DNA of 64,000 nt from positions 21,368 through 85,367 of the IMG/VR virus record IMGVR_UViG_3300044984_001421; one strand, written 5' to 3'. The position numbers were made by a program, and so were the translations under genes. Below are positions 13,311 through 38,674 of this stretch, piece by piece. Origin of the DNA: a virus. Position 1 is the stretch's first letter, and each line of letters opens with the position of its first letter. The notes under the pieces are model-generated. The model saw only the letters and a list, made by a program, of their open reading frames with translations, made no database searches and was not told where the DNA came from.

Positions 13311-13942
13311 TATTTACCACCAGCCTTGTCATAGGCTTCTTTGACCATCTTTGTTTCAGAGCCAAATTTCGGATTGGCGTGATGGATCGTGAGTTCGTTG
13401 TTCTTGAATGTGGCGACATGCCCGTCCTGGTGGACCATGACGTCATGCTTGTCGCCATCCATAAAGCCCATCTTTCCCTTGTGGACGCGCCAGCCTTGAT
13501 CTCCCATGGCATCCATGGTGTCGACGTGCCGACCGCCGCCAGTCCGCATCGTGACGACTGTCTTTCCGTCAGCCCCAGACTTCGAATGAACCCACCCAGC
13601 ATCCTCTGCTTCATTGCCACCTGTCAGGCGGCTTTGAAGGTCAGAAACAGCCTTCGGAGGGGTGATCGAGTTGCCTTCAGGCTTTTTCGCTATGTGGCTT
13701 GACGAATCTTTTCCGCCATTGGCAAAAATGTAATTGCCGACGTGGTTGGTGCCAGACCAGGCATGAACAACGCCTTTCTTCGCATCCTTTTTGAAGTCGA
13801 CGTTTCCGTGAACGGACTTGACTCCGGATACCCATTCGTCATGAGACATCTTCGTGCGTTTGTCGTCGTGAGCCTGAACGACAGCGCCATCCTTCCGGGT
13901 GTACGCATCGATATGGCTCTTGAGTAGGGTGAACTGATTCAT
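13310..13942 (-). CDS. Probable internal virion protein with LKSHIxAYTRKDG tag
   Basis: 210 residues from the ATG at 13942, preceded by CAGGAG. Residues 6-22 read LLKSHIDAYTRKDGAVV and are followed by QAHDDKRTK. The same N-terminus begins two other proteins in this window. The remainder is His/Gly/Lys-rich, with no family I recognise (HVDTMDAMGDQGWRVHKGKM). The gene is translationally coupled to the prohead protease. I infer that the tag directs packaging or processing. Confidence 0.7.
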   Translation of the reverse strand: MNQFTLLKSHIDAYTRKDGAVVQAHDDKRTKMSHDEWVSGVKSVHGNVDFKKDAKKGVVHAWSGTNHVGNYIFANGGKDSSSHIAKKPEGNSITPPKAVSDLQSRLTGGNEAEDAGWVHSKSGADGKTVVTMRTGGGRHVDTMDAMGDQGWRVHKGKMGFMDGDKHDVMVHQDGHVATFKNNELTIHHANPKFGSETKMVKEAYDKAGGK

Positions 13943-13964
13943 GCACGGCTCCTGAATATGGAGC

Positions 13965-13982
13965 CAGCATTGCGTCACGACT
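13965..13982 (-). promoter_or_regulatory. TCGTGACG gene-junction motif
   Basis: Reads AGTCGTGACGCAATGCTG, core 13973-13980. It abuts the stop codon of the SNF2 polyvalent gene and lies about 30 bases before the next ATG. Confidence 0.62.
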
Positions 13983-16900: not shown

Positions 16901-19129
16901 GAGCGCGTGCAGTTTGGTAATCGCCGACTTCGGGTCCACCTTTCCGAGCGACACCTCGACATGGTCCTTCGCGCCTTCGCGTAGCGCCATCACCAGCGAC
17001 GCGCCGGCCTGCAGTTGACCGGTTGCCTGCCCGAGTACGCGCTTGGCCTGCATGACGGCTTCCCGGCGCTTGTGATTGGCTTCTTGGGCGGTTGCCAGGT
17101 CGTATCCGGTTTTGCCTTCCGGCATTTCGATTTCACCAGCGGCGTCGGCGAGTTCGCGCGCCTGCTTGACGGCATTCTGCTGGATGTCGTTCTGTGACTG
17201 GACGTGGTAATTCTCGGCACCTTGGCGGATGCGGTCCAGGTCGCCGGCTTCGTAATCCTTGTGGATGCGGCGGGCAATGATCTGCGACGCGGCACTGATG
17301 CCGAGAACGTCAACCACCGAACGGTCGATCATCGAGTCACCGGCTGCAGCCTGGGCGAAGGCGTTCAGCGCGTTGAATGCGCCGGCTCCGACGTGACCGC
17401 CAAGCGATTCCTCGCCGCCCATCTTGTCGATCTCTGACAGCAGGCCGACAGCGCCGATGGTCTTGATGTCCTGCTCCATCTGTTTGCGCGCGGCGTCTTC
17501 AACATCGGCATCCGACACTTCGAGGATGTGCGCCTTGGACTCAACCACGGAAGCGCCGTCCAGTTCCATGCTGGCATGACGCGCGGCCATTTCGAGCATC
17601 TTCAACTTCTTCTGCGCCTTCACCAGCGCGGCAGCTTTCTTGGCGTCGTCCAGCACCTTCGGCTGCGGCTTGACCGTTTCCGGATTGGCGAGCTTGAAGT
17701 CTTCTACCTCTTTGGCGATGCCGGCAGCCAGGTCTTTCTTCTCGGCAGCCTTCGACGCCTGCGCAGCCAGTTCATCCGGCGACTTTGCATCCGCGCCGTG
17801 GACATTGGTCAGTTCCGCCTCGACAGATTCCGGAGTCAAGCCTTTGTCTGCCGCGCGCTTGCCGAAGTCTTGCGAGAAGCCCAGGCCGGGCGTCTTTTCC
17901 GGCATCGGGTCGAGGTCGGCAACGGAAATCTGGTCCGGGCTGGGGTCGGTCAGCGGGATCTCTCCCAGGCCGGATGCCGCGAGAGCTTCGTGGTCTTCGA
18001 CCAGATTCTTGCGGTTCATTTCAACGGCAGCCTTGGCGCGATGGAAGATGTCCTTGTCGTGTTCCTTGCGGGCTTTCGCCTGGGCTTCTTCGGACAAGCC
18101 GGCGTGCGCTTCTTCATCGAACGCCAGCGACTTGTCGTCCCAGCCCATAACGTCGGCGACCGTCTTCACGAATTCCTCGCGCTGCTTCTTGACCGACTCC
18201 TTCAGCGCGCCCTTCTCGGCTTGCTTCTGGTTGTGTATGCCGGCTGCCTTGTCGGCTTCGATTTGCTTCTTCTTGGCTTCCTGCCGAGCCTGCCCGCGCT
18301 GCTTGATGGAGTCCTTGTAGGACTCGCCGGTCTTCACCGAGCGCAGCTTAAGATGGTTCAGCGCGCCGCCCGCGCCGCCGATGACGCGCATCGAGCCGTC
18401 TTCGTGCGGCATAACCAGAATCGGGCTGCCCTTCGCGCCTGGGTGCGAATGAACAGTGACCCAATGTGCCCCGGCAGGGATGGGACCGTGCTCGGATTTC
18501 AGCATGTGCTGACCGAAGTCTAGAGAATGATCAAAGTCAACTCGGGCAACTCGGGTAACCGGGTCAATTACCCGATTTGCCCGGACTTCCGCCTTCACCA
18601 TCCGCCCGTCAGCCGCCAGCACCTTCTGCTTGAATTCCTCCACCGGCATAGCCGTGACCGGACCAAGGAAACGAGGGTCGTCGTAGTGAAGCAGGTAGGC
18701 GCGCTCGGCTTCTTCCTGGCTGGCAAATTGGAGCATCGCCTTGTCCTCGTCATACCGATCCCATGCGCCTGCCTTGCGCTGGTGGATGATGTAGACCATC
18801 GGCGCGGTTTCATCCGGCCCGAGGTAGCAATCCACATGGTCACCGTCGACACCCAGGCTGGACAACACATAGCCGTAGGGAAACACCATCCGCGTCCCCC
18901 AGGCGTGACCGTCCCGATCAACGCCACGCCGGAACGAGCCGGCCTCGTTTTCAATCGAGATGGTCAGGCCATTCCAGGCGACCTTGCGCTTGCCGTAGTT
19001 CCCGGCCTTGATCTGCGCCGGGGTCGGCTCATGCGGGAAACGGTAGACGGCGTTCTGAGTCTCAGCCTTCGCCAGCGGCGTGCCGACGAAAGCTGCAATG
19101 TGACTACGGAGTGCGGATAGAGAGTCCAT
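13982..19129 (-). CDS. Polyvalent virion protein: pyrophosphatase-like domain plus SNF2 helicase
   Basis: 1715 residues from the ATG at 19129. A GTG lies six bases earlier. Residues ~40-170 match the inorganic-pyrophosphatase-like domain of polyvalent proteins (GLTISIENEAGSFRRG, then FPYGYVLSSLGVDGDHVDCY and LGP). Residues ~200-270 contain GPIPAGAHWVTVHSHPGAKG, another segment typical of such proteins. The long middle is helical. The C-terminal ~530 residues form an SF2/SNF2 helicase, with Walker A SYGAGSGKT (~1225), DEAH (~1355) and motif VI QRNARIHRLGQ (~1650). The family is known for virion-packaged, injected proteins. The N-terminal LRSHIAAF weakly echoes the KSHIxAY tag. Confidence 0.85.
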   Translation of the reverse strand: MDSLSALRSHIAAFVGTPLAKAETQNAVYRFPHEPTPAQIKAGNYGKRKVAWNGLTISIENEAGSFRRGVDRDGHAWGTRMVFPYGYVLSSLGVDGDHVDCYLGPDETAPMVYIIHQRKAGAWDRYDEDKAMLQFASQEEAERAYLLHYDDPRFLGPVTAMPVEEFKQKVLAADGRMVKAEVRANRVIDPVTRVARVDFDHSLDFGQHMLKSEHGPIPAGAHWVTVHSHPGAKGSPILVMPHEDGSMRVIGGAGGALNHLKLRSVKTGESYKDSIKQRGQARQEAKKKQIEADKAAGIHNQKQAEKGALKESVKKQREEFVKTVADVMGWDDKSLAFDEEAHAGLSEEAQAKARKEHDKDIFHRAKAAVEMNRKNLVEDHEALAASGLGEIPLTDPSPDQISVADLDPMPEKTPGLGFSQDFGKRAADKGLTPESVEAELTNVHGADAKSPDELAAQASKAAEKKDLAAGIAKEVEDFKLANPETVKPQPKVLDDAKKAAALVKAQKKLKMLEMAARHASMELDGASVVESKAHILEVSDADVEDAARKQMEQDIKTIGAVGLLSEIDKMGGEESLGGHVGAGAFNALNAFAQAAAGDSMIDRSVVDVLGISAASQIIARRIHKDYEAGDLDRIRQGAENYHVQSQNDIQQNAVKQARELADAAGEIEMPEGKTGYDLATAQEANHKRREAVMQAKRVLGQATGQLQAGASLVMALREGAKDHVEVSLGKVDPKSAITKLHALGLKSGDYKLESVNGNLVTTITGEGLDRLAAPVDVEGMKQISRNMDIISGKHDEDGWLPKGFANRPDLAMKAEPGVAERLAQPFKPGADLAQSLRDYIGGRAADGDSPADILADIQSGDFHAKSGDPEAYRAALDSVAPLKSEDGKMRPVESLAGEFEKMADDYVGKMGGDRSPLHRQKIEINQKSVDALHRALSETPEGVAAFKPIGDLSAQERTGLRKWFNENLAKVDEAGKAARDEHEAHLANEPEKESVDMFGETSTTPEWSAWNAKRDELSQVAGSSGLDWNKYVGIMGSPENAIKSVQDLVRSHVVSKFAEVHNTLNKKNPLKVGKTVIAGNLNHLDAVDPAARAKREESHRALVDSLRERAGGKYSSGSVADKIEAQQEAKAAFEQSQMGFFSTEEDHLPDAGKKVPLGADERHTLGHAAEQQIAGMMSVVGKNFKPGHPTKLWQPSMNDKYTPQQRAIKHIEANKRTVLSYGAGSGKTGIYLGAFSHLHETGKIKRALMLVPSVVQGQFGGEALRYLEPGKFNWHCQPGASQAERIAAYKNPDHHFAVMTHESFRADMQHLGAKHAGITESEMNAKLSAMTPAERKTWAKEVMDKEGMNFDATMVDEAHQIVNRAGKENSARSNVIDAVSDNAEYHVYGSGDPIKNDSSEIHDVMAKMDRERYGDRAAFMRKYGGDTIAAKAALKREMARHVISNTIAPDVDAQHEVHQVELSAGQKSALAALDKSMSKAKAAKTAGKVDVASCKAISPDSFDGVPEEQHEAIAKNIQESLGIIKESAASRIINTHPDNAKIDKVMELVGARKGKPGVVFAHSRAAVAEIEKRLKAAGHRVVTITGSDSAQDKDAKRKQFNPESGEASADIMVASDAAAVGLNLQRGNWLIQHDSPNTAMVHGQRNARIHRLGQKNNVELLDVVANHKSEKAARDRLAKKHMLREFMTDPMDGLDDTGIASFIKPKTDQPQASMF

Positions 19130-19134
19130 CAGCA

Positions 19135-19152
19135 CATCGTGGCGTCACGACA
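19135..19152 (-). promoter_or_regulatory. TCGTGACG gene-junction motif
   Basis: Reads TGTCGTGACGCCACGATG, core 19143-19150. Differs from the copy at 19783 by one base over 18. It begins five bases after the preceding stop codon. The TCGTG/CACGA arms could pair. Confidence 0.68.
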
Positions 19153-19157
19153 CAGGG

Positions 19158-19760
19158 CTATTTGTTCTTCGAACCGGACCCGTTGTTCGCCGTGTTGACT
19201 GCGGCGTGACCATTTGCGTAAGCATGGTGCAGAGCAAGCTGCAGGCTGCGCTTGCTTACGTCATGGAAGTCTTTACGATCAGAGCCGCCCTCTTTCAGTG
19301 TGTCGAAATTGGCGAAATGCTTGGCAGCATCCTTCACCGAGTTGTCACGGTGAACACGCAGCGCGGGATTATTGCCACCAGCGCCCGCGTTGTAGGCATG
19401 TTCGAGAGCGCGCTTCGTGCTTACCTTTCCGGTGTCAACGAAGTCATCGTCGTCATGCCCGACTTCTTTGAAACCATTAACGCCAAGGTGCTTCTTTCCG
19501 GCTTCCTTGGCGGCAGACTCCATCGCATCTGATTTGCCGGCAGCATGGACAGCATTCATCACATCCGCGTGATGTTTGGCAAACCTCTCGTCATCAAGGA
19601 TGACGTGGTGCTTTCCGCCGTTCTTTACCTGAAAGCCGCCATGCTTGAACGGAGACGTTGTGAACGCAGCCTGCCGTGAATCATCATGCGCCTGCACCAC
19701 AGCGCCATCCTTGCGCGTGTAAGCGTCAATATGCGATTTCAATAGGTCGAACTGGTTCAT
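19158..19760 (-). CDS. Probable internal virion protein with LKSHIxAYTRKDG tag
   Basis: 200 residues from the ATG at 19760, which has AAAGGA upstream. The N-terminus reads MNQFDLLKSHIDAYTRK then DGAVVQAHDDSRQ, nearly identical to the protein at 13310-13942. The body is His/Ala/Lys-rich (HHVILDDERFAKHHADVM; SLQLALHHAYANGHAAV) with no recognised fold. It is framed on both sides by TCGTGACG elements, so it may be its own transcription unit. Confidence 0.7.
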   Translation of the reverse strand: MNQFDLLKSHIDAYTRKDGAVVQAHDDSRQAAFTTSPFKHGGFQVKNGGKHHVILDDERFAKHHADVMNAVHAAGKSDAMESAAKEAGKKHLGVNGFKEVGHDDDDFVDTGKVSTKRALEHAYNAGAGGNNPALRVHRDNSVKDAAKHFANFDTLKEGGSDRKDFHDVSKRSLQLALHHAYANGHAAVNTANNGSGSKNK

Positions 19761-19782
19761 TTTCGGTTCCTTTAAGTTACCG

Positions 19783-19800
19783 CATCGTGCCGTCACGACA
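19783..19800 (-). promoter_or_regulatory. TCGTGACG gene-junction motif
   Basis: Reads TGTCGTGACGGCACGATG, core 19791-19798, between the tRNA-Thr gene and the tagged protein gene, about 30 bases before its ATG. Confidence 0.68.
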
Positions 19801-19815
19801 GCCGGCCTTGATAGA

Positions 19816-19893
19816 TGGAGCCGAAGACAGGAATCGAACCTGTGACCTGCCGATTACAAATCGGCTGCTCTCCCAGCATAAAGCTACTTCGGC
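19816..19893 (-). tRNA. tRNA-Thr (anticodon TGT)
   Basis: A complete cloverleaf is visible on the - strand. The acceptor stem is GCCGAAG/CTTCGGC and the D stem GCTT/GAGC. The anticodon arm GCCGA-TTTGTAA-TCGGC gives anticodon TGT (reads ACA). The T loop is TTCGATT and CCA is encoded. The discriminator base is T, which is unusual for tRNA-Thr. It is the only tRNA I found here and lies among virion-protein genes. Confidence 0.9.
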
Positions 19894-20398: not shown

Positions 20399-20632
20399 TC
20401 AACTCTGAATCCGTTCCTTGGCAAGTCCTATCACATGCGCCACCTTGCCGCGCTCCATGGTCAGCTTCCGGTATTCGTCGGCAGCAGACTCGTCCCCGGA
20501 AACAGCCGGCCGGAGTTCGTCCAAGCGCGAGGCAATCTCTCCGTCCCGTTCAACCGCACGGTCGTGGATACGCTGCTCTGCCGCGTTGGTACGGGCAGAC
20601 AGCGCAGCCAGGTCGGAGAACAGGCGCTTCAT
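20399..20632 (-). CDS. Small helical protein
   Basis: 77 residues, charged and helical throughout (LSARTNAAEQRIHDRAVERD, AADEYRKLTMERGKVAHVIG). The ATG overlaps the upstream stop as TAATG, so it is co-translated with the two-copy tagged protein. It could be a coiled-coil partner of that protein. The family is not recognised. Confidence 0.62.
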   Translation of the reverse strand: MKRLFSDLAALSARTNAAEQRIHDRAVERDGEIASRLDELRPAVSGDESAADEYRKLTMERGKVAHVIGLAKERIQS

Positions 20633-21516
20633 TAGATCCGGTGCAGCTTGGTCGGGTGGAAGTCTTTGCCGCTGTAGGTCTTCACCGATGAACCGACGTG
20701 TTCCATCACTTCGTGTTCCTTTCCGAAGTTGTCCTTCACCTTGTCGCCGCGACGGAAATAAGCGCCGTACTTCTGGTGCTCTTCGTGACCAACATCGCCA
20801 GGCTTCGGAACGCGCTGGTCGTCGTGCGCCTGAACTACCGCGCCGTCCTTCCGAGTGTAGGCTTCGATGTGCGACTTCAGGACTTCATGGTCTTCGTCGT
20901 CTTCGTCGCGGTCTTCATCTTCGTCGTCTTCGTCATGCGGAGACAGATCGGACTCATGGTACGAAGCCTTGCTGCCGTCGCTGTGCTTGACGATGTGGAA
21001 GTGACCGCTCGGCGCGGTTTCTTGGATCACGCCGGTTTTACCTTGACCGTTGACCTTGCCGGTCACCTTCACCGAGTCGCCTTCTTTGTGCGTTACCGTC
21101 TTTTCTTCGGCGGCAGCGGAATCATCAATGGGCGCATGGTAGCGGGCATAGCCGTAGCCTTCGGTATTCACAAGATGACGCCCACCATCCTTGTGCTTCA
21201 AGACAAAGTGCTGCGGAGCATTCTCGGCGAAGTCCTTATCGAAATCTGACCCGGCCGGGCTTGTTTTCCCGGCGTTCCCGTAGACCTGTTGATGCGAGAA
21301 TTCAGGAGCGCCATCCGGGATGTCGCCGGCTGGGATTTTCTTCGTGTCGCGCGACCACTCGGTGTCCTTCGACATGAACTTGTCGTCGTGTTTTTCAGCG
21401 ACAGCACGGAGGTCGACCTTCTTGGTGCGCTTGTCATCATGCGCGTTCACAACGGCACCATCCTTGCGCGTGTAGGCGTCGATGTGGCTTTTCAACAGAT
21501 CAAACTGGTCGGTCAT
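20632..21516 (-). CDS. Probable internal virion protein with two copies of the LKSHIxAYTRKDG tag
   Basis: 294 residues, ribosome-binding site AAGGAGAGCAAAG. The tag occurs at the N-terminus (FDLLKSHIDAYTRKDGAVV, then NAHDDKRTKK) and again near residue 214 (VLKSHIEAYTRKDGAVVQ, then AHDDQR). The second copy follows an acidic DEDDEDEDRDEDDEDHE linker. After each tag comes a small domain. The second resembles an RNA/DNA-binding or SH3-like barrel (RRGDKVKDNFGKEHEVMEHV). The layout looks like two tagged proteins fused end to end. A packaged-virion role is inferred from the tag. Confidence 0.72.
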   Translation of the reverse strand: MTDQFDLLKSHIDAYTRKDGAVVNAHDDKRTKKVDLRAVAEKHDDKFMSKDTEWSRDTKKIPAGDIPDGAPEFSHQQVYGNAGKTSPAGSDFDKDFAENAPQHFVLKHKDGGRHLVNTEGYGYARYHAPIDDSAAAEEKTVTHKEGDSVKVTGKVNGQGKTGVIQETAPSGHFHIVKHSDGSKASYHESDLSPHDEDDEDEDRDEDDEDHEVLKSHIEAYTRKDGAVVQAHDDQRVPKPGDVGHEEHQKYGAYFRRGDKVKDNFGKEHEVMEHVGSSVKTYSGKDFHPTKLHRI

Positions 21517-29262: not shown

Positions 29263-29326
29263 ACGCAACGCTGGCGTAACCGGCGCGCAGCGAAGCGGAG
29301 CGTCCGCGTTGACGCAAATGTTAGAA
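29263..29326 (+). repeat. attC-like recombination site 1
   Basis: Inverse core ACGCAAC (29263-29269); arm GCGTAACCGG pairs with TCCGCGTTGACGC. The R' core GTTAGAA lies at 29320-29326. Length and fold fit integron attC sites. The following base extends R' to GTTAGAAC. Confidence 0.75.
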
Positions 29327-29344
29327 CTCAGGAGGGAATAGACC

Positions 29345-29551
29345 ATGCAACTCAGAGAGGGCGAAGTGGCTTTTGTGATGGCGCAAATTGCGCTGCTGAA
29401 CTGCGAAGTGGCTGGCATGCAGGCCGAAAACACGCACCGCCTGAACTGCGGAAATTCCGTTGCCTACGGCGCGGACGAGTTCGCGGCCGTGCGGCAGCAG
29501 TACGAGGCGCTGATCGGCAGCAACGCGATCTTAGAGATGGCGCGGTCATGA
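29345..29551 (+). CDS. Cassette 1 protein
   Basis: 68 residues, with AGGAGGG ribosome-binding site inside the cassette start. Helical and Ala-rich: MQLREGEVAFVMAQIALLNC then AVRQQYEALIGSNAILEMAR. It begins 24 bases after the recombination point of attC 1 and ends one base before attC 2, as integron cassette genes do. No recognised function. Confidence 0.7.
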   Translation: MQLREGEVAFVMAQIALLNCEVAGMQAENTHRLNCGNSVAYGADEFAAVRQQYEALIGSNAILEMARS

Positions 29552-29575
29552 GTTCTAACGAATGACGTGTTAGCC
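29552..29575 (+). repeat. attC-like site 2 (short form)
   Basis: Only 24 bases: inverse core GTTCTAAC (29552-29559), the exact reverse complement of the site 1 core, then R' core GTTAGCC (29569-29575). The central arms appear deleted. Confidence 0.6.
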
Positions 29576-29609
29576 ACGACACGCTAAAACGTGGCACCAC
29601 TGAGAGGAT

Positions 29610-29978
29610 ATGAACGTGCGAACTTTGACTGACCATAAGATTAACCCCGGCAATGACACGCTGACCATTACCGTGCTGGACGAACCTGGGCACGGTGGAG
29701 CAAACCACGCCTACGACATCGAAGGTGGCGAGGCGGTACCGACGCACCTGCGCTTTCAAAACGGCCCGATCAACGCGGACGGCAACGGCGTGAATGGCAT
29801 TACTCACGAGGCGTTGCTTGCGGTGCTGTGTGACCGCCTGCGTGGGTTCCAGGCGGGGCAGTATGCCTGCAAAGCGAACGCTTGCGCACTGACCCACCTG
29901 GAAGAAGCACAGCACTGGCTGCAACAGCGCACCATCGAGCGTATGCGGCGTGGCGTCGAAGGCACGCACACGGTTTGA
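29610..29978 (+). CDS. Acb2/Tad1-type anti-defence protein (cassette 2)
   Basis: 122 residues with GAGAGGA upstream. The N-terminal half is beta-rich (DTLTITVLDEPGHGGANHAY). The C-terminal half has ITHEALLAVLCDRLRGFQAG, then ALTHLEEAQHWLQQRT and RRGVEGTH, matching the helical hairpin of the Acb2/Tad1 domain. Known members sequester cyclic nucleotide signals (CBASS) or gcADPR (Thoeris). Which ligand this one binds cannot be told. It occupies an attC-bounded cassette of about 530 bases. The family call is from memory of the motif, not a search. Confidence 0.72.
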   Translation: MNVRTLTDHKINPGNDTLTITVLDEPGHGGANHAYDIEGGEAVPTHLRFQNGPINADGNGVNGITHEALLAVLCDRLRGFQAGQYACKANACALTHLEEAQHWLQQRTIERMRRGVEGTHTV

Positions 29979-29985
29979 TGTTATG

Positions 29986-30017
29986 GCCGGCATGACGACG
30001 CGAGAACTCATGCCGGC
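29986..30017 (+). terminator. Inverted repeat after the Acb2/Tad1-like gene
   Basis: Perfect 10-bp arms GCCGGCATGA/TCATGCCGGC with a 12-base loop, eight bases past the stop. There is no T-tract, so it may act in RNA 3'-end protection rather than as a classical terminator. It overlaps the start of attC 3. Confidence 0.45.
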
Positions 30018-30105
30018 TAACGAACCAGCTAAGTGGCGCGCGTGACCAAGCCAAACGAAGCTGCGCCGGATGTTCGCGCGTCCCGCCTTGAGCGCCTTGT
30101 TGGGC
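30015..30105 (+). repeat. attC-like recombination site 3
   Basis: Inverse core GGCTAAC (30015-30021) is the exact reverse complement of site 2's R' core. Arms GTGGCGCGCG and CGCGCGTCCCGC can pair. R' core GTTGGGC (30099-30105) fits GTTRRRY perfectly. Confidence 0.75.
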
Positions 30106-30134
30106 TTCTCTGGGCGATCATCTGGCGTCGATGG

Positions 30135-30269
30135 ATGACTGGGCCTGGCGGTCACAAGCGGCGAGTGGTGCGCGTTAAGGGGTGGCGCACAGCCATCGTC
30201 GAGAGCGACTGGGAAATGCGCGTGACGGTGACGCCGTGTTTCTCGGTTTTTGGATGGCGGTTCGATTGA
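30135..30269 (+). CDS. Cassette 3 small protein
   Basis: 44 residues from the ATG at 30135 (MTGPGGHKRRVVRVKGWRTA), ending FSVFGWRFD. The frame is open back to 30033, but that would run through attC 3, so a start inside the cassette is preferred. No ribosome-binding site is obvious. Basic, strand-like sequence; function unknown. Confidence 0.45.
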   Translation: MTGPGGHKRRVVRVKGWRTAIVESDWEMRVTVTPCFSVFGWRFD

Positions 30270-30273
30270 TGAC

Positions 30274-30341
30274 GCCGAACGCCTAGCTAACCGGCGCAGG
30301 CGGCCTTATCGCCTGCGTCCGGGTTGAGCGACGTGTTATGC
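30274..30341 (+). repeat. attC-like recombination site 4
   Basis: Inverse core GCCGAAC (30274-30280) matches the complement of site 3's core at six of seven bases. Arms GCTAACCGG and CCGGGTTGAGC pair around a perfect CGCAGGCG/CGCCTGCG hairpin. R' core GTTATGC (30335-30341). The best-formed of the sites. Confidence 0.8.
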
Positions 30342-30364
30342 CTTTGACAACGAAAGGATGCGCA

Positions 30365-31048
30365 ATGGAACACACAAAAGAGCGTTGGGAGTGGTCGGAG
30401 CACAAATTCAACGCGCCGCCGTTCGAGGGGACACTTGACCACGAATGCGGCATTTACCCACCAGACGGCGAGAGCGGCCCTGTGGCGATAGCCAGCGGGA
30501 AGAACGACGCACGGCGCATTGTGGCTTGCGTGAATGCTTGCGCCGGAGTGACGACGGAAGAACTTGAGCAGGGCGGGTTTGTTTCTGGACTGATTGAGCA
30601 GCGCGACGAGCTTGCAAAACTGTGCAACTACAACGAGCGCTTGATGCAGGACTGTTTGCGCCTGGCCGAAGAAGCGCCGCGCTGGCGTGATGTGGTTGAT
30701 GAGCTTCCGCAAGAGGCGCAAGAAGTGCTGTTTGTGCGTGACGGAAAGACAGTTCACGGCGCGTGGATTGGCGGGATATTCTGGCACAGCAACAAGAAGA
30801 TGGCCGCTGCGCAATGGATGCCACTGCCGAAACCGCCAACGGCGGCGCTTGCGAGACGGCGGCCTGTGGCGTGGATTCGGTTTTGCAGCGACGGATGCTA
30901 CGAGGGGCCGATCATGGACGCACAGATTGAAGATGTGCGAAAGCAAAGCGGGGCATGGACTCCGCTCTATAAGCACAACGACTTGCGACTGGTGCAGGTT
31001 GGTCCCTGCACATGCAGCGACCACGAATGCGGGGAGTGCATGCGATGA
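30365..31048 (+). CDS. DUF551-containing phage protein (cassette 4)
   Basis: 227 residues from the ATG at 30365, with AAAGGATG upstream. A middle segment WRDVVDELPQEAQEVLFVRD and QWMPLPKPP form the DUF551 signature (usually W.sv.d.LP..g..VL and hWmplP..P). The N-terminal third resembles Ea-type proteins (RRIVACVNACAGVTTEELEQ). The C-terminus ends in a Cys cluster (CTCSDHECGECMR). Function unknown. It lies 23 bases past attC 4. Confidence 0.72.
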   Translation: MEHTKERWEWSEHKFNAPPFEGTLDHECGIYPPDGESGPVAIASGKNDARRIVACVNACAGVTTEELEQGGFVSGLIEQRDELAKLCNYNERLMQDCLRLAEEAPRWRDVVDELPQEAQEVLFVRDGKTVHGAWIGGIFWHSNKKMAAAQWMPLPKPPTAALARRRPVAWIRFCSDGCYEGPIMDAQIEDVRKQSGAWTPLYKHNDLRLVQVGPCTCSDHECGECMR

Positions 31049-31287
31049 ACTTCGACGACTGGATGGCTACGCAAAACCCTAAGTACATGCCGACCGACGA
31101 CACTGTGGCGCTGAGGTTGCTGCGCGATTGCTGGAGAGCGGCGGAGTTCCACAGTGATAGAGCGCAGGAGCGCGAGCGGATGATTGCACTGATGCGAGAT
31201 AAGTGCAGGAAAGTCGGCGCTGACAGGACGGCGGCACCTCATGGGCGTTGCGGCATACCAGGAATGCTTGGACACCATGAGGCATAA
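31045..31287 (+). CDS. Second protein of cassette 4
   Basis: 80 residues from the ATG at 31045, overlapping the previous stop by four bases. MNFDDWMATQNPKYMPTDDT then LRLLRDCWRAAEFHSDRAQE is a helical protein of a kind common in phage early regions. Its stop codon lies inside the inverse core of attC 5. Confidence 0.68.
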   Translation: MNFDDWMATQNPKYMPTDDTVALRLLRDCWRAAEFHSDRAQERERMIALMRDKCRKVGADRTAAPHGRCGIPGMLGHHEA

Positions 31288-31318
31288 CGCATGAGACACA
31301 GCAGAATTGACGTATAAC
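31281..31318 (+). repeat. attC-like site 5, probably truncated
   Basis: Inverse core GGCATAAC (31281-31288) is the exact reverse complement of the site 4 core. TTGACGTATAAC follows, but no good GTTRRRY core. This ends the cassette series just before convergent - strand genes. Confidence 0.5.
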
Positions 31319-31335: not shown

Positions 31336-32559
31336 TTACTTCATGCCAGCCTTGCTGATGACATCGTGATCTGCTTCGCTATCCAGATACAGATGAAGAT
31401 CTGACTCTGGAACAAGATGCGCTGCCTGGCTCTCCCAGCCAACGTCCGCAGGCGTTCCTCCGACACGAACCGCATGATAGTAGCGTGTTACAGATGACGT
31501 CCGGTCGACGTCACAGGCATAGCCTACGATCTTCACCTTCAGGCCGGATTCTTCGAACACTTCCTTGATGGCATTCGCCTGCCAGGACATCTCGTCCTCG
31601 ATTTTCCCTTTAGGGAACGTGTTTTTATAGCCGCCGAACTGGTTGGTCGGAGACACCAGCCAGACACGACCATCCGGCTCTTTGATGATGCAGCCTGATG
31701 CCGGCTTGAGTCCTTGCTTCAGATGCATGACAGGCTCGTCCAGGTCTTCCATCTGCCCTTCGACGTAATCCCACTCTTCGTCGGTCTTGGGATGATCCAG
31801 CCAGGGTGACAACGCGAGTCCGTTCAATTCGTCCGGGCAAGCGCCACCAGGGATGAACGTCGCCGTCTTCTTCTGGTCGTGCCAGGTTTCAGGCGCAGTC
31901 TGATGATTCGGGTTGTAGATCCCGACCGGCTTACCGTTGTCGCCGTTCTTCGGGTGGTAGACCTTGGGCGGCGCTTTCGGCAGCGTGTGGAACAGGAACG
32001 AGCCGCCACCCATGCCGTACTGCGGCGCGACAATCTTCTGGTGCGGCTGCGTACTCAGTTTCTTGATCTTGCCGGAGTCGGTGTGCTTGATGCGGAACAG
32101 CGATCCTTGGCGCTCGTAGTCCTTGACGACCGTGCCGTCCTTCTTTGTGTGACCGTGGACGTGCGACTTCGCCATCGTCTCGCCACCGGCAAGCATTTTG
32201 TCTACTGCCTTCTTTGCGTCTTCAATGCCGCCAGGATTCGCCCATGCCTGCGCACGGTAGTGGTCAGAGGACTTCTCTCCGGTGGATGGGTTGACGACCA
32301 GTTTGTAATCATGCCGGTCGAGTATCTCGAACACCGTGGTAACAGTTTTCTTCGTGCCAGCCTTCATCTGCCCAAACACAGATTTTGTTGCCTTTTTCGA
32401 GCCTTCACGCTTGAACACGCGCAACCGAAAGCCACGATACGGCTCGCCGACGTTGTGCTCAGTTCTTGAGTCCTCATGGGCGCGAACGGCTGTGCCGTCT
32501 TTGCGCACAAAGCCGTGGACGTGCGACTTCAACAACCCGGAGTCGGTGACAACGATCAT
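31336..32559 (-). CDS. Nudix-domain polyvalent protein with two KSHVxGxxxKDG elements
   Basis: 407 residues from the ATG at 32559, preceded by AAAGGA. Two copies of the tag-like element occur: LLKSHVHGFVRKDGTAV near the N-terminus and MAKSHVHGHTKKDGTVV near residue ~155. The C-terminal ~130 residues are a Nudix fold: GKIEDEMSWQANAIKEVFEE then SGL, close to Gx5Ex7REUxEExGU but with Met at the first Glu position and Lys for Arg. Nudix enzymes hydrolyse nucleoside diphosphate derivatives such as ADP-ribose. The altered residues leave activity open. ATGA overlap with the gene before. Confidence 0.78.
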   Translation of the reverse strand: MIVVTDSGLLKSHVHGFVRKDGTAVRAHEDSRTEHNVGEPYRGFRLRVFKREGSKKATKSVFGQMKAGTKKTVTTVFEILDRHDYKLVVNPSTGEKSSDHYRAQAWANPGGIEDAKKAVDKMLAGGETMAKSHVHGHTKKDGTVVKDYERQGSLFRIKHTDSGKIKKLSTQPHQKIVAPQYGMGGGSFLFHTLPKAPPKVYHPKNGDNGKPVGIYNPNHQTAPETWHDQKKTATFIPGGACPDELNGLALSPWLDHPKTDEEWDYVEGQMEDLDEPVMHLKQGLKPASGCIIKEPDGRVWLVSPTNQFGGYKNTFPKGKIEDEMSWQANAIKEVFEESGLKVKIVGYACDVDRTSSVTRYYHAVRVGGTPADVGWESQAAHLVPESDLHLYLDSEADHDVISKAGMK

Positions 32560-33050
32560 GCCGGCATCCTTTCTTCTGCTCCCATCAGAACTTTGACCGC
32601 GTACTGCAGCGACGGCTTGAGCATCACACCAAACAGCATGTCGTCGCCATCGGCCAGCTTCCACTTCTCGATAACCAGCGCAGCCAGCCAGTCGAACAGG
32701 ACCGCGACAGGATCATCGGCGAACTCATGCCGGTGAGCATGCCAATGCGGTCCCAGGTCAATCTTCAGCTTGTTGCCCAGCGTGAAGTCGTTATAGCCAT
32801 TGATGATGCTGTAACCAGGGTCACGCCCGGAGAAGATGCCGGCCAGACGGGTGATCTCAGAGCCAAGTTCAGCATGCGCAGAATCTCCCGGAACCTCTCC
32901 GGAAGACGCTGCCATGGCAATCGCTTCAACCTTGGCGGCGAATCCACCAACCAAGCCGGCGACTACATCAGGATTGCCAAGACTGGTCGCGCTTGACGGG
33001 TCCGAGAAGGCTCCTGGCGATACACGATAACGGTCTCTTTCTTGTCCCAT
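32556..33050 (-). CDS. Hypothetical protein overlapping the polyvalent gene end
   Basis: 164 residues from the ATG at 33050, which has AAGGAG upstream. The first 88 bases overlap the end of the 1903-residue gene in another frame. GPHWHAHRHEFADDPVAVLF then DWLAALVIEKWKLADGDDML is a distinctive helical part. Role unknown; it sits between two polyvalent genes and may be their partner or an immunity-like factor. Confidence 0.65.
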   Translation of the reverse strand: MGQERDRYRVSPGAFSDPSSATSLGNPDVVAGLVGGFAAKVEAIAMAASSGEVPGDSAHAELGSEITRLAGIFSGRDPGYSIINGYNDFTLGNKLKIDLGPHWHAHRHEFADDPVAVLFDWLAALVIEKWKLADGDDMLFGVMLKPSLQYAVKVLMGAEERMPA

Positions 33051-36000
33051 TCCGAATTACTCCTTAACGATTTCGCCAGCGTCTGGCCTTTAAGTTGAGC
33101 CACGAAGCCAGTGTCTGGCGGCAGCATGATAACGTCGATGAATACGCCTTGCGGGTGGTTGTGACCGCCAGGCTGAACATCGACTACCAGATACCGCTGG
33201 CCCGGCAACGTTGTCAGTTCGCCCTCACTGCCGAGAGAGCCTGTGCCATACGTCGGCGTTGCTTTGCACCCTGCCGCGCAGCGAATCCGCATCTTGATCT
33301 GCTTGCCGTCCCCGTTCGTAAAGTGCGGCGAGTCGCCCCAGCTTTCGTGGAACGAGGTACACATCGAGTCCGTGTTCTGCAGTATAGCGCCCGGCTTGGT
33401 GGCGAGAAGCTGCTTGGTCATCGACTTGCCAGCCGTGTCGTCGTCCATCCATCGCCACATCTGCGTGCCTTCAGGAAGATCCACAGCGTCGTCGTAGATG
33501 CCAGCCGTCACCTTGTTGATCGGCGTCGAGTCGTATGACGACTTGCCATGCGACCACAGATGGTTTGCAGCACCAGAACCCTGCACACTTGAGATGTAGG
33601 TCTTGGTCGTGCTCCTGACCTTTTGATAGGCAGCCTTGAGCATTCCAGCGAACGATGTTCCTGACTTCTGCCAGAACCACTTCGTCCTTTTCAACAACGC
33701 GACAGCATCGCCTTCATCGATCTGGCACAACTTCATGAAGTACCCGAGACGGTGCTCCTGCGGGATTGTCGTCACGTTCTGGCCTGGCGCGAAAGAACCG
33801 ACCGCATCGGCAATCTCGCTGACCAGACCGAAGCTGCCAAGCGACGGCATCTCCAATGTTTCGACAGGAGGATAGCCAATCGACTGCAGCGTCTGGACCA
33901 GCGACGCCCACTGCTGCTGGATGTGGTTGGAAGGATGCTCTGTAATCGGCTTCTTGCCGATGGACTGGCCGGTCTCCTTGTCCACCGCGTCGTAGTGGTA
34001 ATCCTTCAACGCCTTCAGGTTGCCTTGCATGGCGAAGGCTGCCAGAGCCGCGCTGTCGGCGCTGTTTTTGTCGTTGACGTGCTGCTTCGAAGATACCGGC
34101 TTTCCGCCGTTCAGCGTGTTGAAGTCAAGCGGCGGCTTGATGTCGGCCGGGTCGACGGTCAGCTTTGTCTCATCGACCGGAGGCGTATCCCACTGGTCGA
34201 CAATTCCCATCTGCTTCAGGACGTCAGCGCGCCTGGCAATCAGCTTCTTGGCAAGCGCGGCCTTTTCCGCATCCGTGCCAGGCCCGGCAATTTTGCAGAG
34301 TTCTTCGATTTGCGACGGCTTCAACTTGTTCAACTGCTTGCCACCCCAGGCAATCGATGCGTCCGTAGCGCCGGCAAAGACCGCCGCAGCCTTGGCGTTC
34401 TTGCCGTAGTCCTTCATGGTCTTCAACTCGGCAACCGTGTCGCCGAAGTCCGCGCCCTTCTTGCCGCCCATGGCACGGTAGTCGAGCGAACCGCCCACGT
34501 CGATGCGGACAGCGCCGCCTGAACTGTTGAGCAGCAGGTTGTCGTTCGCCATGCCGACGACATCCCAGTTGCCGATCCAGGCGTCGATGGCGAATGCCTG
34601 GTGTGCGCCAGCTGCGCTGGCAAGATTCTCAGCGCTGCCCTTCTTCATCCCATCAACCCACTTCGAGGCGATACCCAGCTTGCCGTCCTTTTCGACCAGC
34701 TTCAGCGTCGGAACATCGACGCCAAGCATCTGGTAGAACTTGGCAGCCAGGAATTCGCTGCGCACCATTTCGGCGTCGGCCGGGAACTTGCAATACCACT
34801 CCTGCCCGCCTTTGTCCTTGAACTTTCCGCCAGGGTTTGAACCCAACTGCGGACCAGTCTGCGGCCAGGAATCCATTACCGAAACGTGGTCGCCAAGCTT
34901 TGACTTGGCAATCGAGATCGGCGCTGCCGGTTCAACTTTGTGCCAATGGCCGTTTTGGAACACCAGCATGCCATCCGCGCCCTGCTTGGTATCGCCGTCC
35001 TTCGGGCTGGCAGATTGAGCGGCAGTAGAACCCAGTGCAGCGGGGTCAACGCCTTCTGCTTCCGGATCGAACTTGCCAAGCGCAGCGGCATGCATTTGCT
35101 GGCAGAACTTGTAGAACTGTTGACGACGAACAAGCGTCGAGATCGATGTACATTTTCCTGTTTTGAATCCAGTGACGTTTTGCTTCGCCGAAACAGAGCC
35201 GTCGTTGTGGAAAGTGACGTACTGCTTCAACCCTGTAACTCCGCCATTCAATACTGCGTTCTTTATCGCAGTCGAGATGTTGACGTAGATTTTTGAGTTT
35301 TGATGCGGATCAAGCGTCTCGTAATCCGGTACCGGAACTGCCGCTATCTGCTGCGCCTTGGTCAGTTTTTTCTTCTTCTTGAAGACGATGACAATCGGCG
35401 GAATCTCGGTGGGTATTGGCTCGAAGCCGGAAGAGCCGACATAGCTGTAACCGTTTGCGCCCTTCATTCCGACCAGCTTGATCGCAGCCTTGACCGCCGC
35501 GTCGTTGCTGGCATGGACTTCGTCGCCGCTGTGGCCTTTCTGCCCGATCTTGCCGTAGGTCTTGGTCAAAACAGTGCCATGGACCTCGACCTTGTAGAAC
35601 TTGTTGTGCCCTGGTTTTTTGTTTTCCATGTGCGCAATCCACTTGTACCCGGTGGCAGGCTGCGCAGCAGGAGCCGCAGGAGCTGCAGCCACACCCTTGA
35701 TCTTGTCCAGCATTCCGGAATCCGGCATGTGAACGCCGAACATCTTGTCCAGCGTGTTGCGGACGTCGTTTTTGTCGAACGCGGACCATGGGCCAGAACC
35801 GCTACCATCGGCATCGGATGTGCCAATTTGGTACTCTTTCAGGTCATTGTCCCAGCCCACATAGATGGTTGATGTGGCTGTGTGCTCAAGCAGGATCACG
35901 TTGTTCCCGCTGAACCCTTCGTCGTTCATCGACACTTGCCAGGTGCCGGATGGCGCAGGAGCATCGGACGCTGCCGGCTTGGCCGATTCCTGCTCGGCCT

Positions 36001-38674
36001 TTTCCTTCAGAAACTCCTGCTGTCCATTGGTCAAAGAATGCCAAAGCGCCCACATGGTCTTGTCCGTGTTGTCGGTCTGCGGCATGCCAGCCGAGATCCA
36101 CAACTTGAGCGCGTGCTCGTCTTCAGCAGACACATTGGATGGAGCAACCTGCAAGTGCCAGCGACCGTTGAACAGGACGTAGTTCTTGCCGTTGATTTCC
36201 TTGACGTCGCCCTCTTTCGGCCCGCCTTCCTGCGTTTTCTGGCCTGGATGAAAGGCCAGGTTGAGCATCTTTATCGGGTCAGCGCCTTCGTTCTGGACAG
36301 CAACCTCGACCGCAAGTTCATAGGACGCTGAGTGCATCGGCGGCGATGCGGGAGCAGGAATCTCGCCGGCCAGCATCGAGAACATGGCAGCCTTCCAGCC
36401 GTTCTTGCTGTAATCCTGTCCGGTCAAGATGTTCTTCCAGGAGCCGTCCTTCTGCTTCTGGTAGTTGTGCCCTTTGTACGAAGCGTTCACCGCCATCTTG
36501 CCAGCGGCAGCATCCATCTTGCCGGCCGTTTGCATGGCCTGGTCGAGCGCGTACATCGGAGAAGACCAGCCGTCGCCGTCCAGTTCATCGTCGATGAACG
36601 ACTGATAGAAGCCATCGGCAGTCTTGACGACCTTCACATGGTGCCCGTTTACGTTGTCGAACAACACAGTCTCGCCGGCAGCAGGAGGAACGTCAGGCAT
36701 TACCGGAGCACCGACCTTGCCGCCTTGTTTCTTGTTTTCCGCCTTCAAGTGCTGGACTGCCGTCTTCAACGCGGAAGGTTTCAGCCCTGCGTTGTTCGCC
36801 AGAGCCGTAACGACACGCTCCAGCGCTTCACTCGGAACGTGGGCGAGGACCGACATATGATCAATCACGGCGTTGATTGCTTCCTGCGACGGCATGTCGG
36901 GAGTGGATGGCTTCGAAGCTGCAAGCCACTGCTCTCCTGCCTTGTCGATCAAGTGACCAACTTTATCCAGCCCATGCTTGGCAATCGCCGCACTTATGTG
37001 CTGCTGGCCGTTCAGTTCCTCGTAAGTCATTGCTTCGTGCTGCTCGACAGTCGGCACCTTGCCGGCATCGAGCGAGGCGTGCCAGCCATCAACGCCAGGG
37101 ATGGTGTGCGGGTCAACGTCTGGCGCGACCTCTGATTCATGCAGCCACACGGCAACCTGCTTCGGGTTGAATCCGTTCTTTTGATACGTCCCTTGATCGA
37201 CACTGGATAGGTGGGCATACACCGTCTCGTCGGCCGAGAGCTTTGCGCCGATGGCGAGCAGATACCACTTGCCACCGTCGTAATCGACGACCTTCTTGTC
37301 GGCCATCTTCGCCTGGTATTCTGCCTTTTCTTTTTCGGCTAAAGACGGCGACTTGTGCCAACGCCCGTCCTTGAAGGTCAGCGTCCCGCCTTCGCCTTGC
37401 TTGGTGTCGCCATCCTTCGGCGAATCATCCGCTTGCAGCACCACCTTTGCAGTACCGGCAGCGAGCGCAGCGTGCAGCGTCTCCTTCGGGATTGAGACGG
37501 TGTTCTTCGGGCCAGGCACCGTCGCTCCGACCTTGTGCATCTGGTAGGAGTCTGCGCTCTGGTTGTAGATCGTCCAGTCGCCCGCGTTCATCTTGGCGTA
37601 CTGGCTGTCCAGCTTCAGCACAGCGCCGGTCTTGAGGTCCGGGTGCTTGGCAGGCTCTGGTACCGGAGCGGCAATGTTCGCGGCATTCCAGCCGACAGAC
37701 CACTCCTGCAGCGCGTCCATGTATTCGGCATACGGCAGATGGTTGTGCGCCTGCAAGAAGTCCTGGTCGATACCTGCTGCGTGCGGCTTTCCAGCAGCGA
37801 ACGCCGCTGCGCCGTATTCCTTCGGGGTCATGGGCTTCTTGTCGTTCGCATCGACATGAACAGGCGACGTGTCGCTGTTTTCCGTTTTCTTCGACACGAC
37901 ACCCATCAATGCCTCGGCCTTTTCAGCGCCAATGGCCGACTCGATATCTGTCGCCATTTTGGCGACTTTGACCGGGTACTTAGCTGCGTACTCGAAGTAC
38001 GCCTTCTTCTGGCCGGAAGTCGGCGTCTGGCCGGCGAGCATTGCCGCCTTCCAGCCCGAAACAGCAGCGGACAGCGAAGCCTCGGCCTGCAGATCGGTGG
38101 CGTGCGCCAGGACCAGCATCGCCTTGTCGTGGTCGCCAAGCGCGCCGAAGTCTTTCAGTTCCGCCGACAGCTTCTTGTGCGCGGCTTTCTGGTAGTGCGA
38201 GCCTTGGCCGTTTCCGACCTTGGCATGGTCGTGGTCGTCCGAGACGTTGACCATCTTGTGATGGGCATGGATTACCGTGCCGTCCTTCTTCACCGACGCA
38301 GGAATCCACATCTCCTTTTTCACGGTCGCCTTCAGCAAGTCCTCGGTGAACACCAGTATTGACTTGTGAATCGGCACGCCGGAAGACTTCGCGTTCTGAA
38401 CAGCCGCATGCAACTGCTCGGCGGTTGCACCTTCGCCGCCGAATAGATCGTTCGTGCATTTTTCAGGCTTCTTCATGCATTCGTCAGAGAACGGCGACGC
38501 CTTCATGGGTGGTGCTTTCGGACGGGCGAACAGATCAGACGTGTGCGCGTCCTTGGAGGCTCCGCGCGAGTTTGAATGCGGTGACACCTGGACGACGCGA
38601 CCGTTGGCAAGGCGACGCTCGTAGCCACGCACAGCGCCCTTGATGATGTCGGTGACGAAAAACATGATGGTCAT
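32963..38674 (-). CDS. Giant polyvalent protein: kinase-like, WGR and ADP-ribosyltransferase domains
   Basis: 1903 residues. Near residue 115-135 is a tag-like LLKATVKKEM...KKDGTVIHAH. Three 'GDTKxG..L.F..GRWHK' repeats (~435, ~838, ~1246) separate modules. A WGR domain lies at ~1015-1080 (VHGTVLTKTYGKIGQKGHSG). At ~1255-1450 is a protein/lipid-kinase-like domain with EWYCKFP, DAWIGNWDVVGMANDNLLLN (catalytic-loop-like) and DVGGSLDYRAMG (DFG-like). At ~1690-1880 is an ADP-ribosyltransferase with the R-S-E pattern: GTQMWRW, CTSFHES, SEGELTTLPG. It is probably packaged and injected. WGR domains bind nucleic acid in PARPs. Confidence 0.78.
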   Translation of the reverse strand: MTIMFFVTDIIKGAVRGYERRLANGRVVQVSPHSNSRGASKDAHTSDLFARPKAPPMKASPFSDECMKKPEKCTNDLFGGEGATAEQLHAAVQNAKSSGVPIHKSILVFTEDLLKATVKKEMWIPASVKKDGTVIHAHHKMVNVSDDHDHAKVGNGQGSHYQKAAHKKLSAELKDFGALGDHDKAMLVLAHATDLQAEASLSAAVSGWKAAMLAGQTPTSGQKKAYFEYAAKYPVKVAKMATDIESAIGAEKAEALMGVVSKKTENSDTSPVHVDANDKKPMTPKEYGAAAFAAGKPHAAGIDQDFLQAHNHLPYAEYMDALQEWSVGWNAANIAAPVPEPAKHPDLKTGAVLKLDSQYAKMNAGDWTIYNQSADSYQMHKVGATVPGPKNTVSIPKETLHAALAAGTAKVVLQADDSPKDGDTKQGEGGTLTFKDGRWHKSPSLAEKEKAEYQAKMADKKVVDYDGGKWYLLAIGAKLSADETVYAHLSSVDQGTYQKNGFNPKQVAVWLHESEVAPDVDPHTIPGVDGWHASLDAGKVPTVEQHEAMTYEELNGQQHISAAIAKHGLDKVGHLIDKAGEQWLAASKPSTPDMPSQEAINAVIDHMSVLAHVPSEALERVVTALANNAGLKPSALKTAVQHLKAENKKQGGKVGAPVMPDVPPAAGETVLFDNVNGHHVKVVKTADGFYQSFIDDELDGDGWSSPMYALDQAMQTAGKMDAAAGKMAVNASYKGHNYQKQKDGSWKNILTGQDYSKNGWKAAMFSMLAGEIPAPASPPMHSASYELAVEVAVQNEGADPIKMLNLAFHPGQKTQEGGPKEGDVKEINGKNYVLFNGRWHLQVAPSNVSAEDEHALKLWISAGMPQTDNTDKTMWALWHSLTNGQQEFLKEKAEQESAKPAASDAPAPSGTWQVSMNDEGFSGNNVILLEHTATSTIYVGWDNDLKEYQIGTSDADGSGSGPWSAFDKNDVRNTLDKMFGVHMPDSGMLDKIKGVAAAPAAPAAQPATGYKWIAHMENKKPGHNKFYKVEVHGTVLTKTYGKIGQKGHSGDEVHASNDAAVKAAIKLVGMKGANGYSYVGSSGFEPIPTEIPPIVIVFKKKKKLTKAQQIAAVPVPDYETLDPHQNSKIYVNISTAIKNAVLNGGVTGLKQYVTFHNDGSVSAKQNVTGFKTGKCTSISTLVRRQQFYKFCQQMHAAALGKFDPEAEGVDPAALGSTAAQSASPKDGDTKQGADGMLVFQNGHWHKVEPAAPISIAKSKLGDHVSVMDSWPQTGPQLGSNPGGKFKDKGGQEWYCKFPADAEMVRSEFLAAKFYQMLGVDVPTLKLVEKDGKLGIASKWVDGMKKGSAENLASAAGAHQAFAIDAWIGNWDVVGMANDNLLLNSSGGAVRIDVGGSLDYRAMGGKKGADFGDTVAELKTMKDYGKNAKAAAVFAGATDASIAWGGKQLNKLKPSQIEELCKIAGPGTDAEKAALAKKLIARRADVLKQMGIVDQWDTPPVDETKLTVDPADIKPPLDFNTLNGGKPVSSKQHVNDKNSADSAALAAFAMQGNLKALKDYHYDAVDKETGQSIGKKPITEHPSNHIQQQWASLVQTLQSIGYPPVETLEMPSLGSFGLVSEIADAVGSFAPGQNVTTIPQEHRLGYFMKLCQIDEGDAVALLKRTKWFWQKSGTSFAGMLKAAYQKVRSTTKTYISSVQGSGAANHLWSHGKSSYDSTPINKVTAGIYDDAVDLPEGTQMWRWMDDDTAGKSMTKQLLATKPGAILQNTDSMCTSFHESWGDSPHFTNGDGKQIKMRIRCAAGCKATPTYGTGSLGSEGELTTLPGQRYLVVDVQPGGHNHPQGVFIDVIMLPPDTGFVAQLKGQTLAKSLRSNSEWDKKETVIVYRQEPSRTRQARPVLAILM

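What the first reader, a model, noticed from the sequence alone, without database searches (positions are those of the whole stretch)
29263..31318. A run of integron-like gene cassettes inside a phage early region
Five attC-like sites separate five small genes in four cassettes. The decisive evidence is pairwise. In integrons the inverse core of each cassette's attC is the reverse complement of the R' core at that cassette's start. Here GTTAGAAC (29320) pairs with GTTCTAAC (29552), GTTAGCC (29569) with GGCTAAC (30015), GTTGGGC (30099) with GCCGAAC (30274, one mismatch), and GTTATGCC (30335) with GGCATAAC (31281). Sites 1 and 4 also have the internal arms expected of attC. Cargo is phage-type (Acb2/Tad1, DUF551), so the phage appears to trade early accessory genes as cassettes.
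Basis: partly seen in the sequence, partly recalled or inferred. Interest (0 to 1): 0.9.

Follow-up and report, generated by a model that had tools for sequence, protein, structure and literature searches.

The report
Phage gene cassettes from reversed integrons
This phage carries a short row of swappable gene cassettes like those of bacterial integrons, and its relatives show that temperate phages own complete integrons whose genes point the opposite way from bacterial ones and whose cassettes differ between otherwise near-identical phages, so phages seem to trade anti-defence and other accessory genes with a tool thought to be bacterial.

Summary
The array is real. A covariance model built only from bacterial and plasmid attC sites finds three sites at E<=10 in the 64-kb window, all inside the finding (A4 E 2e-4, A3 1.8e-3, A1 0.12). 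A model from other phages' sites adds the truncated A2 and nothing else. The fifth 'site' is only a terminal core box. Cassette 2 encodes a Tad1-type anti-Thoeris protein.

(1) Polarity: every attC lies on the strand opposite to the genes, so each cassette is attC followed by its gene, the reverse of the canonical layout. (2) Related viral contigs encode their own integron integrase (36 IntI loci in IMG/VR) beside a conserved attI-like junction, with inverted arrays: 73 intervals inverted, 4 canonical, against 1 versus 14 and 0 versus 7 in controls. Near-identical phages carry different cassettes at exactly that junction, including one single-cassette insertion.

The window phage shows no IntI or attI in its 85-kb record (possibly a fragment); it is a phage CALIN, probably fed in trans. 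Phage CALINs were already published (Qi 2023); the reversed, phage-resident integron with visible turnover was not found in the literature searched. Recombination is inferred from sequence, not tested.

The parts
29263..29326 (-). attC A1, upstream (outer) end of the array; belongs to cassette 1
   Evidence: CM R1 17.6 bits E 0.12; R2 27.3 bits E 1e-4; DNA fold z -1.2
29269..29558 (+). cassette 1 (attC A1 + gene), cut points inferred as RYYYAA|C
   Evidence: boxes GTTAGAA 29320 / TTCTAAC 29553 complementary
29345..29551 (+). cassette 1 gene, 68 aa, no known family
29553..29575 (-). attC A2, truncated: core boxes kept, hairpin lost; start of the Tad1 cassette
   Evidence: R2 17.8 bits E 0.027; R1 14.7 bits with filters off
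29559..30020 (+). cassette 2 (attC A2 remnant + tad1)
   Evidence: GTTAGCC 29569 / GGCTAAC 30015; the same boxes bound the homologous cassette in other phage arrays
29610..29978 (+). Tad1/Acb2-type anti-defence protein, 122 aa
   Evidence: profile of homologues matches Thoeris anti-defense 1 structures, E 8e-23; PF24729 18.9 bits, below its cut-off of 27
30015..30105 (-). attC A3
   Evidence: R1 26.1 bits E 0.0018; R2 41.2 bits E 4e-8; not a stable fold by energy, z +1.8 on the plus strand
30021..30279 (+). cassette 3 (attC A3 + gene)
   Evidence: GTTGGGC 30099 / GCCGAAC 30274, one mismatch
30063..30269 (+). cassette 3 gene, 68 aa from this start (GTG at 30033 gives 78 aa), no known family
30274..30341 (-). 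attC A4, best site; 98% identical over 62 bases to L019:7433-7494 in another phage array
   Evidence: R1 30.4 bits E 2e-4; R2 52.1 bits E 9e-11; fold z -2.5
30280..31287 (+). cassette 4 (attC A4 + two genes)
   Evidence: GTTATGC 30335 / GCATAAC 31282 complementary
30365..31048 (+). cassette 4 gene 1, DUF551-like (weak), 227 aa
   Evidence: PF04448 15.8 bits, below its cut-off of 22; phrog_924 E 3.4e-4
31045..31287 (+). cassette 4 gene 2, 80 aa, no known family
31281..31288 (+). terminal core box GGCATAAC closing cassette 4; no attC and no phage attI beyond it
   Evidence: no CM hit; attI-type motif absent beyond chance from the window

Best explanation
The locus is an integron gene-cassette array (a CALIN: attC sites without an integrase beside them) in the early operon of a tailed phage. 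It belongs to a larger set of phage arrays in which cassettes have inverted polarity: the attC precedes its gene in the direction of transcription. In related temperate phages the array lies against an attI-like site upstream of a phage-encoded integron integrase. The integrase inserts or removes single cassettes there by recombining attC at G|TT (shown as sequence differences between near-identical phages; catalysis inferred). Because the genes point toward intI and along the phage operon, they are probably read through by phage transcription, not from an integron Pc promoter (inferred). The window phage, which shows no IntI in its 85-kb record, probably gains and loses cassettes through an IntI supplied in trans by a co-infecting or resident phage of this kind or by a host integron (inferred). 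The cargo (Tad1, DNA methyltransferases, RNA ligase, a PTPS/QueD-like enzyme, DUF551) fits an exchangeable counter-defence and accessory set.
For: attC models, bacterial-trained and phage-trained, hit only these sites in the window. In the related contigs almost all sites lie on the strand opposite to the genes, and in the IntI-bearing viral loci all 89 hits are on the strand opposite to intI. ORF polarity in intervals: phages 73 inverted, 4 canonical, 3 ambiguous; controls 1/14/1; bacterial relatives of the phage IntI 0/7/2. G009 IntI: TIGR02249 465.9 bits, cut-off 265, on a contig with a lambda-type terminase (575 bits), primase/helicase and RusA. 36 IntI loci in IMG/VR, 10 of 29 searched records with a terminase of that family; six neighbours of an array or intI tested are phage-type integrases. 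G009, G024 and G025 share flanks and IntI at 99.9-100% but have different cassettes up to RYYY|AACTTAAATTCG 63 nt before intI. L180/L181: one extra attC+gene unit, GTTCGGCGTC...GACGCCGAAC, inserted exactly between GGCAC and AACTTAAATTC. Box pairing over 38 cassettes. Shared cassettes among phages.
Against: No IntI over the cut-off and no attI motif in what was searched of the window phage, and its near-identical copies show no difference in the array. The record has no terminal repeats and may be a fragment. A3 does not fold stably by energy, A2 has lost its hairpin, and A1 is only E 0.12 with the bacterial model. The ORF polarity count is a simple ORF/Shine-Dalgarno rule. The relatives are metagenomic contigs; 19 of 29 IntI records had no hit to the one terminase family searched. 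No recombination assay was run.
Confidence: 0.87

Rival explanations
1. The phage passively picked up a piece of a host's chromosomal integron by ordinary recombination; the array is a dead fragment and phages have no special relation to integrons.
For: Host integron pieces in phages are documented (V. anguillarum phages, P1, Shewanella M16-3; Qi et al. 2023, PMC9892861). The window array has no IntI and contains a truncated attC.
Against: The cargo has homologues in ordinary phage contexts without attC. Polarity is opposite to that of the bacterial arrays tested. Many related viral contigs have arrays and their own clustered IntI lineages, with turnover in near-identical phages.
Confidence: 0.08
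2. The repeats are not attC but phage terminators or other hairpins placed between genes.
For: Hairpins between small phage genes are common (own knowledge), and A3 and A2 are poor attC.
Against: A bacterial-trained attC model finds them and nothing else in 64 kb; core boxes pair across genes more than within sites; units insert precisely at AAC in relatives.
Confidence: 0.02
3. The array is genuine and cassettes move, but for this phage only through host integron integrases; the phage-encoded IntI genes are not the enzyme that serves it.
For: The window phage shows no IntI. IntI1 can recombine attC sites of other phages (Qi et al. 2023). These attC are recognised by a bacterial-trained model.
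Against: Phage IntI sit next to conserved attI-like junctions with observed variation; inverted polarity is the phage habit, not that of the bacterial arrays tested.
Confidence: 0.25

Closest known systems
CALINs in virulent and temperate phages (Qi et al. 2023, PMC9892861)
   Same: attC sites and cassettes in phage genomes without IntI; five of six phage attC tested there recombined with attI1 by IntI1
   Different: In TJE1 the attC lie on the gene strand, and the paper calls the TJE1 and PH101 layout typical of bacterial arrays; here attC are opposite to the genes, and relatives have phage-resident IntI and turnover
Complete integrons in temperate phages (V. anguillarum p16, P1 L-II, Shewanella M16-3)
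   Same: IntI plus cassettes in a phage genome
   Different: The paper reads the V. anguillarum cases as pieces of the host chromosomal integron and the P1 case as class 1 integrons; here the IntI cluster among viral contigs and the arrays are inverted
Class 1 and sedentary chromosomal integrons
   Same: IntI of TIGR02249, attC with core boxes, array on the 5' side of intI, insertion at G|TT next to attI
   Different: Cassette genes point toward intI rather than away; an attI-like sequence of the type TTAAATTCnnCGACA shared across the phage set; phage-type cargo; several intI lie beside a phage integrase
Tad1 (Thoeris anti-defence 1)
   Same: Cassette 2 protein family, profile E 8e-23 to solved Tad1
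   Different: Its other homologues seen here lie in ordinary phage gene clusters; here the gene is in a mobile cassette

Membership tests
CALIN (cluster of attC lacking an integrase) | at least two attC sites close together | tested here: met
   three attC within 1.1 kb plus one truncated
CALIN (cluster of attC lacking an integrase) | no intI nearby | tested here: met
   only a phage-type tyrosine recombinase found in the 85-kb record
Complete integron (window phage) | intI gene | tested here: inconclusive
   none over the cut-off in 85 kb, but the record has no terminal repeats and may be incomplete
Complete integron (window phage) | attI site | tested here: not met
   phage attI-type motif not found beyond chance in the window; other attI types cannot be excluded
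Complete integron (related phages G009, G024, G025) | IntI of the integron family | tested here: met
   TIGR02249 465.9 bits against cut-off 265 for G009; identical protein in G022-G025
Complete integron (related phages G009, G024, G025) | attI next to intI with variable cassettes | tested here: met
   three different cassette ends joined to the same AACTTAAATTCG junction; motif shared by many IntI loci
Complete integron (related phages G009, G024, G025) | attC sites in the array | tested here: met
   G009 five sites, G024 one; the short cassette stretch of G025 gave no hit
Complete integron (related phages) | cassette genes read away from intI, as for expression from Pc | tested here: not met
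   73 of 80 scored intervals have the gene opposite to attC, i.e. toward intI where intI is present
Integron | IntI-dependent recombination of folded attC with attI | not testable with these tools
   inferred from sequence junctions only
Tad1/Acb2 | sequence profile of the family | tested here: met
   A4 profile to PDB Tad1 E 8e-23; Pfam hairpin model below its cut-off
Tad1/Acb2 | binds nucleotide signals, blocks Thoeris or CBASS | not testable with these tools
   no assay

The most novel reading that the evidence does not exclude
Temperate phages own a distinct, long-standing class of integron with reversed cassette polarity, its own attI type and IntI lineages. It serves as a shared exchange system for counter-defence and other accessory genes among unrelated phages, including phages such as this one that carry only the cassettes and borrow the integrase.
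Probability: 0.72. Interest if true: 0.95.

Novelty: new variant of a known kind. Interest (0 to 1): 0.88.

Why it matters
Phage accessory and anti-defence genes turn over fast, and this is usually put down to undirected recombination. A phage-resident integron would be a dedicated, site-specific mechanism for swapping single genes, here with an anti-Thoeris protein among the cargo. The attC/attI grammar would also be a search tool: genes bounded by these sites are candidate anti-defence genes. The reversed polarity suggests that the integron machinery can serve an operon without its own Pc promoter, and it means that tools built on the canonical layout may assign the wrong attC to a gene.

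Tried and rejected
The first attC scanner demanded complementarity of the two core boxes within one site and found almost nothing; in arrays the boxes pair across the gene, so it was replaced. Rfam at gathering thresholds gave no attC hit. Nucleotide search of the phage and plasmid collections with the region found nothing. Relatives of the upstream gene (L008-L012) have no attC hits but gave no clean empty site, as the downstream gene was found only in copies of this phage; a further upstream gene also found only its own phage. Virus Rctr41k has an IntI-like gene but no attC hit in the 13.6 kb read. The host was not determined: the terminase's best named matches are Acinetobacter phages at about 53% identity over half the protein, not enough to name a host. 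Passive capture of a host integron and non-attC hairpins were considered and set aside for the reasons given under rivals.

Full report
WHAT WAS CHECKED. The window is bases 21368-85367 of an 85,367-base IMG/VR virus record, called G000. The question was whether they are attC sites.

ARE THEY ATTC? A covariance model (R1) was built from 25 attC sites of class 1 integrons, Vibrio and Shewanella integrons and bacterial chromosomes, none from the window or its phage relatives. Over the whole 64 kb, both strands, it gives three hits at E<=10, all inside the finding: 30274-30341 (30.4 bits, E 2e-4), 30015-30105 (26.1, 1.8e-3), 29263-29326 (17.6, 0.12). Without filters the truncated site 29553-29575 gives 14.7 bits. 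A second model (R2) from 34 sites of related phages, window excluded, gives 52.1, 41.2, 27.3 and 17.8 bits and again nothing else. The box at 31281 is not an attC; it is the closing core box of the last cassette. The pairwise box argument alone is near chance in a 2.1-kb stretch (P 0.057; chained link 0.0145), but across 38 cassettes of this and related phages it is far beyond shuffles (121 against 79+-5).

POLARITY. All hits are on the minus strand while the genes are on the plus strand. The model tells strands apart: A4 scores 30.4 on minus and 6.5 on plus, and the class 1 control site L120:17250 scores 49.3 in its true direction and 17.0 in the other. In related contigs G005, G008, G015 and G026 (genes plus, attC minus) and G009 (genes minus, attC plus) the same holds for nearly all sites. 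In the control phage TJE1 the sites are on the gene strand. With a simple ORF plus Shine-Dalgarno rule, phage intervals are 73 inverted, 4 canonical, 3 ambiguous; the control arrays 1, 14, 1; bacterial integrons nearest to the phage IntI 0, 7, 2. In the Tad1 contigs L018, L020, L021 and L024 an attC or attC-like end lies upstream of the gene and none downstream, only a core box (GGCTAAC, or GGCTAAA in L024), as expected if a cassette is attC followed by gene.

PHAGE INTEGRONS AMONG RELATIVES. The Tad1 cassette was found in other viral contigs. One of them, G009, encodes a full IntI: TIGR02249 465.9 bits, cut-off 265, in a contig with a lambda-type large terminase (575 bits), a primase-helicase and RusA. 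The identical IntI occurs in four more records. Oriented along intI, the records G009, G024, G025, G022 and G023 share aligned flank stretches at 99.8-100%, but between the far flank and intI G009 has about 2.75 kb of cassettes, G024 about 0.36 kb, and G025 another cassette next to intI. All join the same sequence, RYYY|AACTTAAATTCGACGACACC, 63 bases before the intI start. G022 repeats the G009 arrangement and G023 that of G024, in other metagenomes, which speaks against assembly error. A second pair, L180 and L181, has identical IntI and near-identical flanks; L181 has one extra unit, attC then gene, with 10-base terminal complementarity (GTTCGGCGTC...GACGCCGAAC), placed exactly between ...GGCAC and AACTTAAATTC. 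This is what one cassette insertion at attI looks like. (The two arrays also differ at the far end.)

BREADTH. An alignment of three phage IntI found 36 IntI loci in IMG/VR. Arrays lie on the 5' side of intI in nearly all loci with sites (L189 has sites on both sides); the 89 attC hits by R2 are all on the strand opposite to intI. The motif AACTTRAATTC lies upstream of intI in many of these loci, with variants such as AACTCCAATTC in others. Ten of 29 searched records carry a terminase of phrog_15; G026 and G027 carry tail genes, L202 a portal gene, and a phage-type integrase lies near intI in L176, L180, L183, L191 and L192, and near the IntI-less array of G005. L199 ends in a lon gene, as an integrated prophage would. 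In a quick tree the viral IntI are clustered, four label changes against 17.8 when shuffled, with several long branches of unsure place. Some records are short, and a few could be host integrons filed as viral.

CARGO. Window cassette 2 is Tad1-type. Elsewhere: N6/N4 and Dam methyltransferases, RNA ligase, DUF551, a DHH protein, and a 6-pyruvoyl-tetrahydropterin-synthase family (QueD-like) gene next to intI in G025. Homologous cassettes recur in different phages, while Tad1 homologues in other phages sit in contexts without attC.

HOW IT PROBABLY WORKS. Shown from sequence: attC array, inverted polarity, phage IntI and attI-like junction in relatives, precise differences at the cut point. Inferred: IntI recombines folded attC with attI; cassettes are expressed by the phage operon; the window phage, in which only a phage-type integrase was found, with no attI-type motif and unknown completeness, relies on IntI in trans. 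Its near-identical copies show no change in the array, so movement in this very phage is not shown.

KNOWN AND NEW. Qi et al. 2023 (PMC9892861) reported phage CALINs and a few complete integrons, several interpreted as host-derived, and showed IntI1 activity on phage attC. Eight literature searches found no report of reversed cassette polarity or of cassette turnover in phage-resident integrons; the library holds open-access papers only and no preprints, so absence there is not proof. I therefore call it a new variant of a known kind.

Noticed in passing
window 51713-54313 (-): Large terminase is 866 aa with an intein-like insert: residues about 65-405 match parts of unrelated phage proteins in PHROGs, with a LAGLIDADG domain at 276-338 in Pfam.
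   Followed up: partly
window 13310-13978, 19158-19796, 20632-21516 (two copies), 31336-32664 (all -): A motif like LLKSHIDAYTRKDGAVVQAHDD recurs, mostly near the start, in several otherwise different proteins; possibly a shared targeting or packaging tag.
   Followed up: partly
window 31336-32664 (-): Protein with the repeated motif and a C-terminal NUDIX domain.
   Followed up: no
window 13982-19135 (-): 1717-aa protein combining an inorganic-pyrophosphatase-like domain and a helicase; conserved at 48% in phage G008.
   Followed up: no
window 32963-38674 (-): 1903-aa protein with a WGR domain.
   Followed up: no
L104:16383-17813: The terminase match of the related phage G008 has two in-frame stops inside it.
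   Followed up: no
L019:7532-7660 compared with 8369-8460: The start of a methyltransferase gene is cut off at a GTTATGC by an RNA-ligase cassette, close to an intact gene with nearly the same start; looks like insertion at a secondary site inside a gene.
   Followed up: partly
window 19816-19893 (-): Single tRNA-Thr(TGT) gene.
   Followed up: no
L199:9890-12316: A lon gene, probably the host's, beside an IntI-bearing prophage end; could identify host and attachment site.
   Followed up: no
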